A stretch of 40,188 nucleotides of DNA from a virus, in the IMG/VR virus record IMGVR_UViG_3300009545_000041, positions 1-40,188 of that record; one strand, given 5' to 3'. Made by a program: the position numbers and the translations under genes. Of the stretch, positions 22,604 to 27,981 are shown in pieces. The first letter of the stretch is position 1; each line of letters begins with the position of its first letter. The notes beneath the pieces were generated by a model. The model saw nothing but the letters and a program-made list of their open reading frames with translations. It was not told the DNA's origin and searched no databases.

Positions 22604-23041
22604 ATGTCAGCCGAGGCGCCCTGGATAACTTCCCCTCGTGCTGTGTTCAACCCCCTGGCAAGCCGGGCCGTCATCCAGATCAAGGGCTCTGGACCGGTCA
22701 CACGGCAGCCGGGGGGTTTCAAGGCCGTCTGCGCCCGAAATCGGAGGCAAACTCCGACTATCAGACAAGAGCGGCTGCCGGGGAAGACACGGATCGACCT
22801 GAAGGACCTGGAAGTGCTGATGCAGGGTCTAGACAGTCCTCGGAGTACCTGTCCGAGGCCTCTCCTCCAGGAAGTGATGTGCTGGCAGTGGTCGGTGGGG
22901 CAGATCCATCGACGGCCGCAAGGCGGTAACGCACGTGAAAGGGTCGCCCGGCAGGTATGCATGCCTGACCGGTTAACGCCCGCGAGTAGCGGTGACACTG
23001 GCCTTGGCGCCCACGGCATCACCAGTGGGGGCTCGTCGTGA
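22604..23041 (+). CDS. Possible leaderless protein of unknown function
   Basis: A 145-codon frame starting MSAEAPWITSPRAVF six bases after a good -10 box. It has no ribosome site, as expected for a leaderless mRNA. Third codon positions are GC-rich in parts (for example the stretch coding TRIDLKDLEVLMQGLD), which supports coding, but the last 11 bases overlap a tRNA-like gene and no family is recognised. It could instead be an untranslated structured leader. Confidence 0.35.
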   Translation: MSAEAPWITSPRAVFNPLASRAVIQIKGSGPVTRQPGGFKAVCARNRRQTPTIRQERLPGKTRIDLKDLEVLMQGLDSPRSTCPRPLLQEVMCWQWSVGQIHRRPQGGNARERVARQVCMPDRLTPASSGDTGLGAHGITSGGSS

Positions 23042-23150
23042 CCGAGTGGCTTAAGGTGACTGGCCTAGCGCGGGACCTTGCGCGGAAGCCGGTGGAGGTA
23101 AGGCAGAGGCCCGGCCTTATCTTCCGTGGGTTCGAATCCCACCGATGAAC
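23032..23150 (+). tRNA. Class II (Ser-type) tRNA-like gene with expanded anticodon loop
   Basis: Acceptor strands 23032-23038 and 23143-23149 pair at six of seven positions (C1.A72 mismatch). The D arm ACC-GAGTGGCTTAA-GGT is Ser-like, the T arm GTGGG-TTCGAAT-CCCAC is perfect, and there is an unusually long variable arm of about 32 bases. The anticodon stem ACTGGC/GCCGGT closes a 23-base loop instead of 7; the extra bases contain a GCGC...GCGC hairpin. No Ser anticodon remains by simple removal of the insert, so decoding ability is doubtful. Confidence 0.55.
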
Positions 23151-23330
23151 AACGCCGTCTAGCTAGCGGCGCCAGATGGTGGACTCGCCTAGTGATCGGA
23201 CGAGAATGAAGCCATCGATGGTTGTGCCCAGTGGTCACCTGGGCCGTGATGCGCTACCGGATAGGGTCCGGGGAGGGCGTCCTGTTGTCCAACGACCACG
23301 GGAACCTGGAGCAGAGCCAGGGCATCGCAC
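23151..23330 (+). other. Structured non-coding stretch, function unknown
   Basis: About 180 bases without a supported gene. It contains a hairpin at its start (CGCCG...CGGCG around 23153-23171), a D-arm-like CTCG-loop-CGAG element near 23183-23203, and a hairpin GCCCAG-loop-CTGGGC near 23227-23245. No T arm is associated with the D-like arm, so no tRNA is called. Confidence 0.4.
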
Positions 23331-23480
23331 GCATGAGGTCTGGTGCGACAGGTTCGGATGCTTCTCCTGTCAATAGGGTGGTTGCGGGTTCGAGTCCCGT
23401 CCCTATGGCCAAAAGCCTGTGGGTAGCTCAACCGGCAGAGCACCCTGTTCCCGAGCCGACCTTGATCTCAGACCTCATGC
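23331..23480 (+). ncRNA. Circularly permuted tRNA-like element in an inverted repeat
   Basis: The outer ends GCATGAGGTCTG (23331-23342) and CAGACCTCATGC (23469-23480) are exact reverse complements; one more G.T pair extends the helix. Inside, a tRNA 3' half comes first (TAGGG, TGGTT, T arm GCGGG-TTCGAGT-CCCGT, CCCTATG, then GCCA) and a 5' half follows (CTGTGGG, TA, D arm GCTC-GAGC, A, CCCTG, TT). The anticodon stem CCCTG/TAGGG forms only between the two halves in permuted order. The acceptor strands pair at just four of seven positions, which is the main weakness. A hairpin GACAGG/CCTGTC precedes the 3' half. Confidence 0.5.
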
Positions 23481-23486
23481 AGCTTG

Positions 23487-23577
23487 GCCCCCGTAGCTCA
23501 ATTCGGCAGAGCAACGGCAGGTGAGGGCGCCCCTTGGTCCTGACCGTGTGTTGGCGGTTCAAATCCGCCCGGGGGCC
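23487..23577 (+). tRNA. Lys-type tRNA body with a rod-like anticodon arm
   Basis: Acceptor GCCCCCG/CGGGGGC (7 of 7), D arm GCTC/GAGC, T arm GGCGG-TTCAAAT-CCGCC and variable GTGTT are all normal and resemble phage tRNA-Lys. The anticodon stem ACGG/CCGT continues into CAGG/CCTG and AGGG/CCCT, so the normal 7-base loop is replaced by 24 bases. No anticodon can be assigned. It may be an intron-like insertion or a deliberately non-decoding tRNA mimic. Confidence 0.65.
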
Positions 23578-23669
23578 CGATGCACCACCCGGAGTTGATC
23601 GCTTCGGGGACGGGCACCCTGATCGACGCCACGGTGCTGGCAGGGATTGAATCCCGGGGGGTCCACCAA

Positions 23670-23781
23670 GGGTCGGTAACTCAATTGGCAGAGTCCTCGC
23701 CCACCTGGATCCATGGGACTGCATGGAGGCAAAAGGTGGGAGTCGACCGGGGAGATGGAGGTTCGAATCCTCCCCGGCCCT
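23670..23781 (+). tRNA. tRNA body with a 39-base expansion of the anticodon loop
   Basis: Acceptor GGGTCGG/CCGGCCC pairs fully with one G.T, D arm ACTC/GAGT, T arm GGAGG-TTCGAAT-CCTCC. The anticodon loop region (23701-23746) holds 46 bases, including a 7-bp hairpin CCCACCT (23700-23706)/AGGTGGG (23734-23740) with an inner CCATG/CATGG. Removing the hairpin exactly leaves a 7-base loop AGTCGAC on a 5-bp stem, but without U33. Anticodon not assignable. The frame that crosses it is not a gene. Confidence 0.65.
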
Positions 23782-23878
23782 CGTGAAACGTACCGAAACG
23801 GGCGCCACCTACTAATCAGGGAGAAGAAGGCCCCCTTACTACACCTGTACCTGCAATCCATCTACCACGGGAGGACAG

Positions 23879-24352
23879 ATGCTCGTAGATCTTCCGAGTC
23901 AGGTTTCGGGCTACACCAGCGATCCGATGATGGAGATGCTGGCCCGCATGACGGACGGAAATGCCAAGCCGGAACGCCTCGATCAGGGCGTGTACGTCAC
24001 CCATCTCAACTTCAACCACGAGCTGCGATCGGCTGGCCTGCTGCTGAGCATGTACCCGTTCAGCGCTTGGGAGAGCGACAAGGAGTACGACCCCTCAGCG
24101 CCTGACGATTACGGGGTGTGCGACAACTACCACCAGATCATCGCCAGGTGGTGGGAGCAGCTCAACGTTCCGGACCGGAGGTTCGTCATCTGCCTCACGC
24201 AGATCCGCAAGGACCAGCAGTCACCGGAGGGCGGCTGGCGCTGGCACAAGTGGGGTCCGTACATCGGAACCGGGAAGCCGCAGTGTGAGTACCTGTACGA
24301 CGAGCCCGATATCCAGGAAGTCTTCTGCTTCCACATTCTTGAGCTGAGGTAA
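23879..24352 (+). CDS. Protein of unknown function in the tRNA region
   Basis: A 157-residue protein with a strong GGAGG ribosome site five bases before the ATG. It is Trp and Tyr rich (WRWHKWGPYIG, NYHQIIARWWEQLNVPDRRFV) and ends with EVFCFHILELR. Sequence looks like a globular cytoplasmic domain; no signal peptide or membrane helix. It is followed 14 bases later by a 56-residue gene, so they probably share a transcript. No family is recognised. Confidence 0.75.
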   Translation: MLVDLPSQVSGYTSDPMMEMLARMTDGNAKPERLDQGVYVTHLNFNHELRSAGLLLSMYPFSAWESDKEYDPSAPDDYGVCDNYHQIIARWWEQLNVPDRRFVICLTQIRKDQQSPEGGWRWHKWGPYIGTGKPQCEYLYDEPDIQEVFCFHILELR

Positions 24353-24621: not shown

Positions 24622-24784
24622 GGGGACGTAGCTCAGTTGGATAGAGCATGGGACCTCTCACTGAAACGGGGTTATCGACCGTGACTGCCTCTAGCTGGAT
24701 GTTTAGGCCACTACGCAGGACGCACGCCGAAAGGCTTCAGGTGGGAGCATCCACGGGTCGGCTGTTCGAATCAGCCCGTCTCCA
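24622..24784 (+). tRNA. tRNA body with an 88-base insertion in the anticodon loop
   Basis: Acceptor GGGGACG/CGTCTCC (one G.T), D arm GCTC/GAGC, T arm GGCTG-TTCGAAT-CAGCC; the body resembles phage tRNA-Met or -Ile. Between TGGGA and TCCA lie about 95 bases closed by CTCTCAC (24655-24661)/GTGGGAG (24741-24747). Inside are hairpins ACGG/CCGT, GCCT/AGGC and a GCC-GAAA-GGC tetraloop. Too small for a group I intron. Anticodon not assignable. It ends two bases before tRNA-His. Confidence 0.65.
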
Positions 24785-24786
24785 CG

Positions 24787-24982: not shown

Positions 24983-25047
24983 GCGGCTGTAACTCAGTAG
25001 AAGAGTCCCGGATACCGGAGTCGGGGGTGCGAATCCTCCCAGCCGCA
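24983..25047 (+). tRNA. tRNA-like gene with a shrunken anticodon arm
   Basis: Acceptor GCGGCTG/CAGCCGC pairs fully; D stem ACTC/GAGT with a short 7-base loop lacking GG; T stem GGGGG/CCTCC with loop TGCGAAT. Only 15 bases separate position 26 from the T stem instead of about 22. They fold as CCGG-ATA-CCGG, a 4-bp stem with 3-base loop, so no normal anticodon exists. Probably non-decoding or decayed. Confidence 0.55.
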
Positions 25048-25076: not shown

Positions 25077-25448
25077 TTGAACGTTGAGATCAAGAGGCGC
25101 TGGGTCGAGGCCCTGCGCAGCGGGCGATACCGGCAGGGAAGGCAGGTCCTGGTCGAGCCGGACCACATCCTCGGGGATGCTTTCTGTTGCCTCGGCGTGC
25201 TCTGCGAGATCGCCGTCCAGGATGGCGTGATCGTTCGCGGTGGGCAATGGTACCGGGACCCGAAAGATCCCATGGATGAAAACTGTGTCGCCCTCCCGAT
25301 GGCCGTACTCAAGTGGTCCGAGCTTCCCACCGAAGGGCACTGCGCCAGCGAGGTGGTCCTCGGCAAAGATATCTATCTGACCACGCTGAACGATGACCGC
25401 AAGTACGACTTCAATCAGATCGCCGACGTGATCGAGAAGTCCCTATAA
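25077..25448 (+). CDS. CCLGVLC-family small phage protein
   Basis: A 123-residue protein with a TTG start at 25077, six bases after AGGAGG. Pattern: WVEALRSGRYRQG near the N terminus, AFCCLGVLCEIA in the middle, and a C-terminal helix FNQIADVIEKSL. Two more proteins in the window (35317-35703 and 36104-36505) share every one of these blocks in the same order. The family is known to me only as recurrent phage proteins of unknown function. Follows the tRNA array on the same strand. Confidence 0.75.
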   Translation: MNVEIKRRWVEALRSGRYRQGRQVLVEPDHILGDAFCCLGVLCEIAVQDGVIVRGGQWYRDPKDPMDENCVALPMAVLKWSELPTEGHCASEVVLGKDIYLTTLNDDRKYDFNQIADVIEKSL

Positions 25449-25690: not shown

Positions 25691-26125
25691 ATGGAACTCT
25701 CGTTCAAGGATGCGGCAGCCGGAGGGCGGGAATTCCTCAGTGACGGCTACCTGGAAGAACTGCGAAAGCATTTCAGTCTCAGCTACACCAGGATGGCGAC
25801 ATACCTGCACACCAACTCCAGGACGTTGAAGCGCTGGATGGCCGAGCCGGGCTTCGCGGCGAACATCCATGACACGACTGCGGCGAGGATCGGGCAGTTC
25901 GCGTACGACCTCATCATGAAGATCAAGGAATTCCGCGAGCAGGGCGTCGAGGTGAACGATCTCTACCCGTTGTCGCTGCTGGCCGGTCAGCTGGGTCGTT
26001 CGGTGACCTCGCCGAGTTTTCAGCGGATGTGTCAGTCCGGGGAAATAACCTGCTACGACATGGATTTCCTGGGCGTCTACATCCCGGTGTCCCAGGTCGA
26101 TCAGCTGAGGAAGGCCAAGCGGTGA
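25691..26125 (+). CDS. DNA-binding regulator with two HTH-like regions
   Basis: A 144-residue protein, start MELSFKDAA at 25691 behind GGAG. Residues 30-55 (LSYTRMATYLHTNSRTLKRWM) look like a helix-turn-helix; residues 90-135 (LAGQLGRSVTSPSFQRMCQ, then YIPVSQVDQLRKAKR) look like a second, excisionase/MerR-type winged helix. It lies right behind promoter P3 whose spacer holds a palindrome, so autoregulation is an attractive guess. Its stop overlaps the nuclease GTG start by 4 bases. Confidence 0.65.
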   Translation: MELSFKDAAAGGREFLSDGYLEELRKHFSLSYTRMATYLHTNSRTLKRWMAEPGFAANIHDTTAARIGQFAYDLIMKIKEFREQGVEVNDLYPLSLLAGQLGRSVTSPSFQRMCQSGEITCYDMDFLGVYIPVSQVDQLRKAKR

Positions 26126-27981
26126 GGTGTCGGATCTGCGGAACCATGCTCGACGCGGTGCTCGTCGATGTCGGCCTGGATAAGCACCCCGGATGTCAGG
26201 AGGACCTGGAGCGTCAGCTCGCTCAGCGCAACGAGGAACTGAAAACACAGCTTCTCGAGATAATCACCTGGGCCGACCGCAATTCCGCCCGGTCAAAACA
26301 GCTGGCCATCGGGCCATCTGAGATCGGACAGACCTGCGACCAACGGATGGCCCGGACTCTGGCAGCGATGCCGCAGATCAACTTCCGGTTCGACCCATGG
26401 GCCGGGATCGTCGGCACCGGCATCCACTCCTGGATGCAGAAGGCCGTCGACCGATTCATGAAGGAAACTCGGGGCTTCACCGGAACCAACTGGGTTACCG
26501 AGACCAGGGTCCACGCGGACGATGTCATCTCCGGCTGCTCCGACCTGTACACCGGCGATGTCGTCGACTACAAGGCCCAACCGCTGGATGAGCCTGTCCT
26601 GACGCCCAATGGCTGGAAGGTCATGGCCGCCCTATCAATCGGCGACGAGGTCATCGGATCGGACGGCAAACCCACGAAGGTGATCGGGGTCTTCCCGCAA
26701 GGCGTGAAGGAGGTGTTCAAGGTGACCACGCGCGACGGTGGTTCCACGCGGGCAACCGCCGAACATCTCTGGACCATCACCCATTGGGCTGGTGGCAAGG
26801 AAGCAGTGGGAGTCCGAACCACCGAATGGCTGAAAGAGCGAACCCACCGCAAGGGCTTCACCTTGAAGCTGCCGCGACTCGCCCCGGTGGTCTTCGAGAG
26901 CCAGGTTGATTTGGACGTGGACCCCTACACGCTTGGCCTTCTCCTCGGAGACGGCGGCATGTCCGGAGACTCGGTCAGGTTCACCAACGCCAACGGCCTA
27001 GAGAAGTTCCTGCGCTTCAAGGTGACTGGCGGCAACGGGCAGTTCAACGTCCATGATGCGGTCGGTCCGATGCGTGTCCTTGGCTTGATGGGCAAGCTCT
27101 CCGTGAACAAGTTCATCCCCTGGCAGTACCTGATGGCCTCCCCGGAGGACCGCTTGGCCCTACTTCAAGGGCTGATGGACACCGACGGGTCTGTGCATCG
27201 TTGCAACGCCAAGTTCAGCACCAGCTCGGACTTTCTGGCTCGCGATGTCCGCTTCCTGGTTGAAAGCCTGGGCGGCAAGGTTCATGACTTCAAGGATTCA
27301 GCTCTCCGGGAAGGCGCCACACGGCTCGCCCATTTAATGAGCATCAAGCTTCCGGCCGGCATGTGCCCTTTCCGTGCGGACATCGCCATAAAGAAGGGTC
27401 GCTGGGCCGAGGGAAGCCACGATGCTCGTCGGGTAGTCCAATCCGTCGAACCCGACGGTGAGGTTCCCACTATGTGCATCGCGGTGGAAGCCGAGGACAA
27501 CCTGTACGTCACGAAGAACTTCCTGCTGACACACAACTCGGCCGCCGCCGACAAGATCAAGAAGATGAGCCTGGGCGACATCTCGCTCATCCCGATGAGT
27601 TATCGGGTGCAGGGGCATATCTACGGACTCGGCAACATCCGAGCCGGCCGGAGGGTTCGGGACATCGTCCTGGTGTTCCTGCCCCGCAACGGCCTCATCA
27701 CCAACATGTTCATCCACCGGGAGCCCTACAACGAGTTGATCGCCTTCAAGGCCCTGGATCGGATGTACACCATCGTCGACCGCATGAACGAGCTGCAGCT
27801 GCCGGAAAGGGCGGCCAACTGGCCGCAGATCGTCAAGGAGCCCGGCCCCGGTTGCTGGTACTGCCCGTTCTTCAAGCCCGGCACCAAGGACGACCTTCCG
27901 GATGCCACCGGCTGCCCCGGCAATACCGACGCCAAGACGAACATGGAGAAGTCCCTGAAGGAATGGGATGGACTCCTCTAG
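26122..27981 (+). CDS. Cas4/RecB-like nuclease interrupted by an intein
   Basis: A 619-residue precursor with GTG start overlapping the previous stop (GTGA). Exteins total 298 residues. An N-terminal CxxC...HxxC cluster (residues 3-25) precedes the PD-(D/E)xK fold: SEIGQTC (C72), H102, SGCSDLY (D141) and VVDYK (149-151). C578, C581 and C598 with C72 would form a Cas4/AddB-type iron-sulfur cluster. An intein occupies residues 152-472. The mature enzyme is likely a DNA end-processing exonuclease for recombination or replication. Confidence 0.85.
   Translation: MRCRICGTMLDAVLVDVGLDKHPGCQEDLERQLAQRNEELKTQLLEIITWADRNSARSKQLAIGPSEIGQTCDQRMARTLAAMPQINFRFDPWAGIVGTGIHSWMQKAVDRFMKETRGFTGTNWVTETRVHADDVISGCSDLYTGDVVDYKAQPLDEPVLTPNGWKVMAALSIGDEVIGSDGKPTKVIGVFPQGVKEVFKVTTRDGGSTRATAEHLWTITHWAGGKEAVGVRTTEWLKERTHRKGFTLKLPRLAPVVFESQVDLDVDPYTLGLLLGDGGMSGDSVRFTNANGLEKFLRFKVTGGNGQFNVHDAVGPMRVLGLMGKLSVNKFIPWQYLMASPEDRLALLQGLMDTDGSVHRCNAKFSTSSDFLARDVRFLVESLGGKVHDFKDSALREGATRLAHLMSIKLPAGMCPFRADIAIKKGRWAEGSHDARRVVQSVEPDGEVPTMCIAVEAEDNLYVTKNFLLTHNSAAADKIKKMSLGDISLIPMSYRVQGHIYGLGNIRAGRRVRDIVLVFLPRNGLITNMFIHREPYNELIAFKALDRMYTIVDRMNELQLPERAANWPQIVKEPGPGCWYCPFFKPGTKDDLPDATGCPGNTDAKTNMEKSLKEWDGLL
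26575..27537 (+). mobile_element. LAGLIDADG intein (Ala1 type) in the nuclease
   Basis: A 321-residue intein. It starts with Ala (AQPLDEPVLTPNGW) instead of Cys or Ser, has splicing block B around TRATAEHLW, and ends NFLLTHN before Ser+1. Two LAGLIDADG motifs are visible: YTLGLLLGDGGM and ALLQGLMDTDG. It sits right after the active-site Lys of VVDYK, so splicing restores VVDYKSAAAD. Ala1 inteins splice through the class 2 route (direct attack by Ser+1). Confidence 0.92.

What the first reader, a model, noticed from the sequence alone, without database searches (positions are those of the whole stretch)
23331..23480. Circularly permuted tRNA-like element enclosed in a 12-13 bp inverted repeat
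A T-arm half with encoded GCCA precedes a D-arm half; the anticodon stem CCCTG/TAGGG forms only across the permuted order, and the outer flanks GCATGAGGTCTG/CAGACCTCATGC are exact complements. A second pairing GGTTCGG/CCGAGCC lies inside. This is the layout of permuted tRNA genes of some algae and archaea, not expected in a phage. The acceptor pairing is only 4 of 7, with a CAAAA loop joining the strands, so it may be a closed tRNA-like RNA rather than a functional tRNA.
Basis: partly seen in the sequence, partly recalled or inferred. Interest (0 to 1): 0.72.

Follow-up and report, generated by a model that had tools for sequence, protein, structure and literature searches.

The report
Phage Y RNA mimicking a tRNA
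The odd "inside-out tRNA" in this phage is a Y RNA, a small RNA built like a re-ordered, closed tRNA on a long stem that normally docks on the bacterial Ro60 ring protein; here it sits in a phage record that shows no Ro gene of its own, so the phage may be using it on the host's RNA-handling machinery.

Summary
In detail: T-arm half before D-arm half, exact 12-bp outer inverted repeat (23331-23342/23469-23480), inner helix GGTTCGG/CCGAGCC. It is not a permuted tRNA gene. It is a bacterial Y RNA, whose effector module is a circularly permuted, closed tRNA mimic. Evidence: match to Rfam YrlA (34.5 bits, E 4e-5; sister phage 40.6 bits, E 3e-6). A covariance model built only from 25 viral Y RNAs lying beside Ro60 (TROVE) genes, without this element, scores it at 109.6 bits (E 2e-29); the best tandem-tRNA control gives 47. 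The same RNA lies directly upstream of Ro genes at 76 of 80 actinobacterial loci. The Ro-stem motif GGUGCG(A)CAGG / CCGACCUUGAUCUC is nearly identical to that of Ro-linked Y RNAs. The acceptor strand is closed by a loop, so it cannot be charged as it stands. Two features stand out: no Ro gene in this 40-kb record or four sister contigs (all possibly fragments), and an anticodon-arm-like hairpin (CUNNNAA loop), typical of the actinobacterial branch but absent from the Rfam consensus. Ro binding and function are inferred. Most likely it docks on the host's Ro60 (Rsr) ring and presents a tRNA mimic.

The parts
23331..23480 (+). Whole Y RNA element (closed, circularly permuted tRNA mimic on a Ro-type stem)
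   Evidence: R1 model 109.6 bits over 23337-23478, E 1.9e-29; Rfam YrlA 34.5 bits over 23374-23449; fold z -5.25
23331..23342 (+). Basal stem, 5' strand GCATGAGGTCTG (exact complement of 23469-23480)
   Evidence: sequence; pair probabilities 0.98-1.0; the equivalent family helix covaries (helix 1)
23342..23352 (+). Inferred Ro-binding site, 5' strand GGUGCGACAGG; 23346-23348 CGA pairs with 23462-23464 UUG
   Evidence: near-identical GGTGCGCAGG in Y RNAs beside Ro genes; pairing probability 0.67-0.77; protein binding inferred
23351..23357 (+). Upper Ro stem, 5' strand GGTTCGG (pairs with 23451-23457)
   Evidence: pair probability ~0.7; 6 of 7 pairs of the equivalent family helix show two-sided changes (helix 2)
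23362..23378 (+). Anticodon-arm-like hairpin TTCTC-CTGTCAA-TAGGG (pseudo-anticodon GUC); innermost C.U mismatch here, intact with GUU in L006; in single-sequence folding TAGGG pairs with CCCTG 23443-23447 instead
23384..23400 (+). T-arm GCGGG-TTCGAGT-CCCGT
   Evidence: sequence; invariant family columns and covarying closing pair
23401..23423 (+). Acceptor-stem mimic closed as a hairpin: CCC-UAU-GGC [CAAAA] GCC-UGU-GGG
   Evidence: pair probabilities 0.88-0.99; CGTCC-GCAA-GGACG in L006; equivalent family hairpin strongly covarying (helix 5)
23426..23441 (+). D-arm GCTC-AACCGGCA-GAGC
   Evidence: sequence; invariant in the family
23442..23447 (+). A26 plus 5' strand of the anticodon stem (CCCTG), pairing back to 23374-23379 across the permutation
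   Evidence: pair probability ~1; family columns 48-118 and 49-117 show two-sided changes
23451..23457 (+). Upper Ro stem, 3' strand CCGAGCC
23456..23469 (+). Inferred Ro-binding site, 3' strand CCGACCTTGATCTC, identical to that of several Ro-linked Y RNAs (e.g. L080, L123, L126, L170, L185, L242)
23469..23480 (+). Basal stem, 3' strand CAGACCTCATGC

Best explanation
The element is a phage-encoded Y RNA of the actinobacterial Ro60/Y RNA family. Shown by sequence and comparison: its ends form a long stem with the conserved stem motif of Y RNAs that lie beside Ro genes, and its upper part is a complete tRNA cloverleaf in permuted order (anticodon arm, T-arm, hairpin-closed acceptor, D-arm). Inferred: transcribed with the neighbouring tRNA array, it binds a Ro60-type ring (Rsr). 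As no Ro gene is seen in this record, that ring would be the host's, whose own Y RNA genes are of the same family. The tRNA-shaped module then gates or tethers the ring's partners (PNPase in the known RYPER complex) or occupies tRNA-binding or tRNA-cutting enzymes, so the phage redirects host RNA decay or protects its tRNAs.
For: Rfam YrlA matches in window, sister phage L006 and more weakly L008, with no YrlA match at E<=5 in six tRNA-dense phage loci. Model R1, from 25 viral Y RNAs within 1.5 kb of a Ro gene and with window and L006 left out, scores window 109.6 and L006 112.7 bits against <=47.3 for tandem-tRNA controls. Real covariation in that family: 141 two-sided cells against 48+/-5 in shuffles, 0/500. 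Permuted order plus a long enclosing stem goes with an adjacent Ro gene in IMG/VR: 30 of 45 against 15 of 97, Fisher p = 2.9e-9. 76 of 80 actinobacterial Ro loci have such an RNA within 600 nt upstream, median 47 nt. Genuine Ro-linked actinobacterial Y RNAs score only 32-47 bits with RF02553, the same range as the window, so the sub-gathering score is expected. Ro-site motif nearly identical. Known biology: Y RNA tethers Rsr to PNPase (PMC7790460, PMC8394870).
Against: No TROVE/Ro gene in the record or in four sister contigs, so the usual genetic link is missing here; but the records may be fragments (an ORF runs off the left end). RF02553 score is below Rfam's gathering score of 69. Single-sequence folding does not favour the cloverleaf. 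The window copy has a mismatch in the anticodon-arm hairpin and a 3x3 internal loop in the acceptor hairpin, which could be early decay. No expression, Ro binding or effector data. The host is not known.
Confidence: 0.9

Rival explanations
1. A true permuted tRNA gene (red/green algal or archaeal type): 3' half before 5' half, spliced at a bulge-helix-bulge and trimmed by RNase P/Z into a chargeable tRNA.
For: T-half precedes D-half; the CCCTG/TAGGG stem forms across the permutation with pair probability ~1; an encoded GCCA lies after the T-arm.
Against: The acceptor is a closed hairpin; L006 has only 5 bp closed by GCAA and no CCA. No splicing endonuclease or RNA ligase found among tested window proteins. 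The element fits the Ro-linked Y RNA model end to end.
Confidence: 0.03
2. Chance juxtaposition or remnants of two tandem tRNA genes (3' half of one, 5' half of the next).
For: It lies inside a tRNA array; tandem tRNAs do give weak YrlA-like matches in control genomes.
Against: The linker is too short and self-paired; flanks form long helices with the conserved Ro-site motif; conserved at 91% column identity in L006 with a re-made acceptor hairpin; score 109.6 against <=47.3 for tandem-tRNA controls; fold z -5.25.
Confidence: 0.02
3. A Y RNA that has lost its Ro partner and now works alone as a tRNA decoy, for example a competitive substrate or inhibitor of host anticodon nucleases or tRNA-binding factors.
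For: No Ro gene seen; anticodon-arm-like loops with conserved CU..AA and a variable middle triplet in the family; competitive inhibition of an anticodon nuclease by YrlA has been suggested as a possibility (PMC7790460); phage tRNAs are proposed to evade tRNA-targeting defences through anticodon-loop changes (PMC10264068).
Against: The Ro-site motif is still conserved here, unexpected if Ro binding had been lost; the motif is partly altered in L006 (CTGATC for CTTGATC); no nuclease data.
Confidence: 0.2
4. The phage does carry its own Ro gene in a part of the genome missing from this record, making this an ordinary phage Ro-Y RNA pair.
For: The record may be incomplete; in some viral contigs Ro lies beyond the fetched locus (L193, L144, L103).
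Against: Ro genes normally follow the Y RNA at once (median 47 nt in genomes); here the next 2 kb hold tRNAs and an unrelated ORF; the 54-kb and 47-kb relatives also lack TROVE.
Confidence: 0.25

Closest known systems
Bacterial YrlA / Y RNA (Rfam RF02553; Rsr-PNPase 'RYPER' tether)
   Same: Permuted tRNA-like effector module with T-arm, hairpin-closed acceptor and D-arm on a long stem made by the two ends
   Different: Extra anticodon-arm-like hairpin, absent from the RF02553 consensus structure; scores 34.5 bits against a gathering score of 69; no Ro gene in the record
Actinobacterial chromosomal and phage Y RNAs directly upstream of Ro (TROVE) genes
   Same: Same length, Ro-stem motif, anticodon-like hairpin and closed acceptor; full-length match to their model (109.6 bits)
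   Different: No adjacent Ro gene; one C.U mismatch in the anticodon-like stem; longer acceptor hairpin with a 3x3 internal loop
Permuted tRNA genes of red/green algae and Thermofilum (from general knowledge)
   Same: 3' half encoded before 5' half; anticodon-stem pairs across the permutation
   Different: Acceptor closed by a 4-5-nt loop, no CCA end in the sister, no splicing machinery found, member of another RNA family
tRNA-like domain of tmRNA / permuted tmRNA
   Same: tRNA mimicry in a larger RNA
   Different: No tmRNA match at this place; no free acceptor end; no tag ORF sought or evident

Membership tests
Bacterial Y RNA (YrlA type) | tRNA-like module in permuted order T-arm, closed acceptor hairpin, D-arm | tested here: met
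   alignment
Bacterial Y RNA (YrlA type) | Long stem formed by 5' and 3' ends enclosing the module | tested here: met
   12 + 7 bp; covarying in the family
Bacterial Y RNA (YrlA type) | Conserved Ro-stem motif | tested here: met
   GGUGCG(A)CAGG / CCGACCUUGAUCUC as in Ro-linked Y RNAs; actual protein binding not testable here
Bacterial Y RNA (YrlA type) | Rfam RF02553 score at or above gathering (69 bits) | tested here: not met
   34.5 bits; but 0 of 10 Ro-linked actinobacterial loci reach it either (best 47.3), so the threshold does not cover this branch and is not treated as a defining feature
Bacterial Y RNA (YrlA type) | Ro60/TROVE gene nearby (usual, not strictly defining) | tested here: not met
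   no TROVE in the record or in four sister contigs; records may be fragments
Bacterial Y RNA (YrlA type) | Binds Rsr and an effector such as PNPase | not testable with these tools
   needs biochemistry
Actinobacterial Ro-linked Y RNA branch | Full-length match to a model made from Ro-linked members only | tested here: met
   109.6 bits, positions 1-141 of 141
Permuted tRNA gene | Seven-pair acceptor stem with a free, CCA-bearing 3' end after linker removal | tested here: not met
   acceptor pairs 4 of 7 in that register; 5-bp stem closed by GCAA in L006
Permuted tRNA gene | Bulge-helix-bulge splice site and splicing endonuclease/ligase | tested here: inconclusive
   no such enzyme among 20 window proteins scanned; host enzymes unknown; BHB not scored formally

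The most novel reading that the evidence does not exclude
A phage carries an orphan Y RNA, without its own Ro, that acts in trans on the host's Rsr; and the actinobacterial Y RNA branch to which it belongs mimics the entire tRNA, including an anticodon loop with conserved CU..AA and a variable triplet (GUU, GCU, CCU, CUU, GUC and others). Y RNAs would then present selectable 'anticodons', for instance as baits for anticodon nucleases or anticodon-reading enzymes.
Probability: 0.3. Interest if true: 0.65.

Novelty: new member of a known kind. Interest (0 to 1): 0.42.

Why it matters
It turns an apparent eukaryote/archaeal-style oddity into a Y RNA, and shows that phages, and nearly all of the actinobacterial Ro loci sampled, carry a Y RNA branch that Rfam's threshold misses. 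If the orphan status holds, the phage would be manipulating host Ro60 RNPs with an RNA alone, a simple system for asking what bacterial Ro60 does during infection. The anticodon-like loop with a variable triplet makes the idea that Y RNAs act as baits for tRNA-cutting enzymes directly testable.

Tried and rejected
Permuted tRNA gene: rejected on the closed acceptor and Y RNA membership. Tandem tRNA halves: rejected with controls. Intron-containing tRNA for this element: ARAGORN with introns does not call it. Exact DNA patterns from the element found only the sister contig. The ORF 23879-24352 used as bait brought unrelated phages; the ORF at 25077 brought none. The scan with the 14-mer CCGACCTTGATCTC is mostly chance matches, and only a few (L080, L242, L261) were real Y RNAs. 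L008 has weaker, partly local hits (33-35 bits), so its orthology is unresolved. The first Fisher table included duplicate loci and was replaced by the de-duplicated one. The anticodon-arm counts use a simple pattern rule and a few are mis-phased. The key Y RNA papers (Chen 2014; Sim and Wolin 2018) are not in the library, so whether the anticodon-like arm was described before could not be checked.

Full report
Observation. The window is a whole 40,188-base virus record. The feature is present as described: T-arm half, short linker, D-arm half, enclosed by an exact 12-bp inverted repeat, with a second helix GGTTCGG/CCGAGCC inside. The segment folds with z = -5.25 against dinucleotide shuffles. 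The acceptor is best read as a closed hairpin, CCC-UAU-GGC [CAAAA] GCC-UGU-GGG. A sister contig (L006, 91% terminase identity) has the same element at 91% column identity; there the acceptor is CGTCC [GCAA] GGACG. So in both phages the acceptor strand is closed by a small loop.

What it is. Searched without thresholds, Rfam gives YrlA (RF02553, bacterial Y RNA) at 34.5 bits, E 4.2e-5 in the window, 40.6 bits full-length in L006 and 34 bits in L008. YrlA is itself a permuted tRNA mimic. Because a tRNA followed by another tRNA can imitate this order (weak hits in 13 of 14 control genomes), I ran controls: six tRNA-dense phage loci gave no YrlA match at E<=5.

Independent family model. A DNA search found the same permuted order in isolated phages. 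In Gordonia phages Cashline and Neville, Streptomyces phage Quantum and Caulobacter phage CcrColossus it lies just upstream of genes annotated as Ro-like or TROVE, and Gordonia phage Sixama carries a Ro-like gene about 1.3 kb away in the same tRNA array. A pattern scan of IMG/VR gave many more. After removing duplicates, loci whose flanks form a long enclosing stem (>=25 pairs) have a Ro gene within 1.5 kb in 30 of 45 cases against 15 of 97 for the rest (Fisher p = 2.9e-9). I aligned 25 Ro-linked viral members, leaving out window and L006, and built model R1. It scores L006 at 112.7 and the window at 109.6 bits (E 2e-29), while the best tandem-tRNA control reaches 47.3 bits. Covariation in the training alignment is strong: 141 two-sided cells against 48 +/- 5 in shuffles, 0 of 500, and slid controls fail.

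The host side. A scan of bacterial genomes with a viral-contig Ro protein (100% identical to one in Streptomyces sp. NRRL F-5135) returned 80 actinobacterial loci (Streptomyces, Amycolatopsis, Nocardia, Nocardiopsis and others). R1 finds a Y RNA of at least about 56 bits within 600 nt upstream of Ro in 76 of the 80, median distance 47 nt, same strand. The window's score lies in the middle of this set. Ten of these loci score only 32-47 bits with RF02553, so the window's sub-gathering Rfam score is normal for the actinobacterial branch.

Anatomy. The Ro-stem motif of this branch, GGUGCGCAGG on the 5' side and CCGACCUUGAUCUC on the 3' side, appears in the window as GGUGCGACAGG and CCGACCUUGAUCUC. 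From my own knowledge it resembles the classical Ro site of vertebrate Y RNAs (GGU, bulge, CGA opposite UUG-ACC): here GGU-G-CGA opposite UUG-AUC. Above it come an anticodon-arm-like hairpin (CU NNN AA loop), variable loop, T-arm, closed acceptor and D-arm. The anticodon stem is split: outer pairs form across the permutation and inner pairs locally, both with two-sided changes. By a simple rule 36 of 49 viral-type and 66 of 95 mainly chromosomal members have such an arm, with U33 (required by the rule) and mostly A37/A38, and a variable triplet; GUU is commonest. The window has GUC, with a mismatch in the local stem. The RF02553 consensus structure shows no such hairpin, and a review describes YrlA as mimicking the D, T and acceptor arms (PMC8394870).

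Caveats. Thermodynamic folding of the single sequence prefers T-arm/D-arm mispairing; the cloverleaf rests on conservation and covariation. Ro binding, effector binding and expression are inferred. The host was not identified.

Orphan status. No TROVE domain is found in the record or in four sister contigs, two of them 47 and 54 kb; tblastn with four Ro proteins also found none in the window. The records may be fragments, so a Ro gene elsewhere in the genome remains possible.

How it most likely works. In the known system Y RNA tethers the Ro60 orthologue Rsr to PNPase and directs it to structured RNA (PMC7790460, PMC8394870). The most economical reading is that the phage RNA, made with the tRNA array, loads onto host Rsr and presents a tRNA-shaped module, altering access of Rsr or PNPase to RNA during infection. 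A bait role against anticodon nucleases is a live alternative: the authors of PMC7790460 suggest competitive inhibition, and PMC10264068 argues that phage tRNAs evade tRNA-cutting defences through the anticodon loop.

Verdict. A real, well-conserved RNA, correctly spotted but mis-filed: a new member of a known kind, with two interesting departures (no Ro gene seen; anticodon-like arm) that deserve tests.

Noticed in passing
window 23670-23782 and L006 4319-4432 (minus): tRNA-like gene with a ~41-42-nt insert at the anticodon loop; the insert hairpin is conserved in the sister phage with a compensatory change (UCCAUG/CAUGGA to UCCACG/CGUGGA), so the insert itself looks functional.
   Followed up: partly
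window 23031-23151, 23487-23578, 24622-24785: Further tRNA-like genes called only when anticodon-loop inserts are allowed (26, 19 and 72 nt); too short for group I introns and no splicing enzyme seen.
   Followed up: partly
window 24983-25047; L006 4155-4227 (minus): tRNA genes with normal acceptor, D and T arms but an anticodon loop reduced to 3 or 4 nt, which could not decode.
   Followed up: partly
L006 about 4577-4506 (minus): tRNA-like element without a D-arm and with an 18-nt anticodon loop, at the position where the window has the 23487 tRNA.
   Followed up: no
window about 23577-23668; L006 about 4320-4226 (minus): A ~90-nt element (GATGCACCAC...GGGGGGTCCACCA) highly conserved in sequence but placed before the insert-bearing tRNA in the window and after it in the sister; T-loop-like GGGATTGAATCCC inside; identity unknown.
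   Followed up: no
window 26029-27981: Probable intein: Hint and LAGLIDADG matches inserted in an exonuclease-like protein.
   Followed up: no
L051 6331-6458, 7141-7270; L053 1734-1866: ARAGORN calls tRNAs with 45-53-nt anticodon-loop inserts in large phage contigs too.
   Followed up: no
L064, L132, L142, L145, L109: Many viral Ro loci carry two tandem Y RNAs with different loops.
   Followed up: partly
L063 (Mycobacterium phage MalagasyRose) 540-604: Permuted tRNA-like order close to odd 'tRNA-OTHER' and 'tRNA-Pyl' calls, with no TROVE gene in the 54-kb complete genome; another possible orphan.
   Followed up: partly
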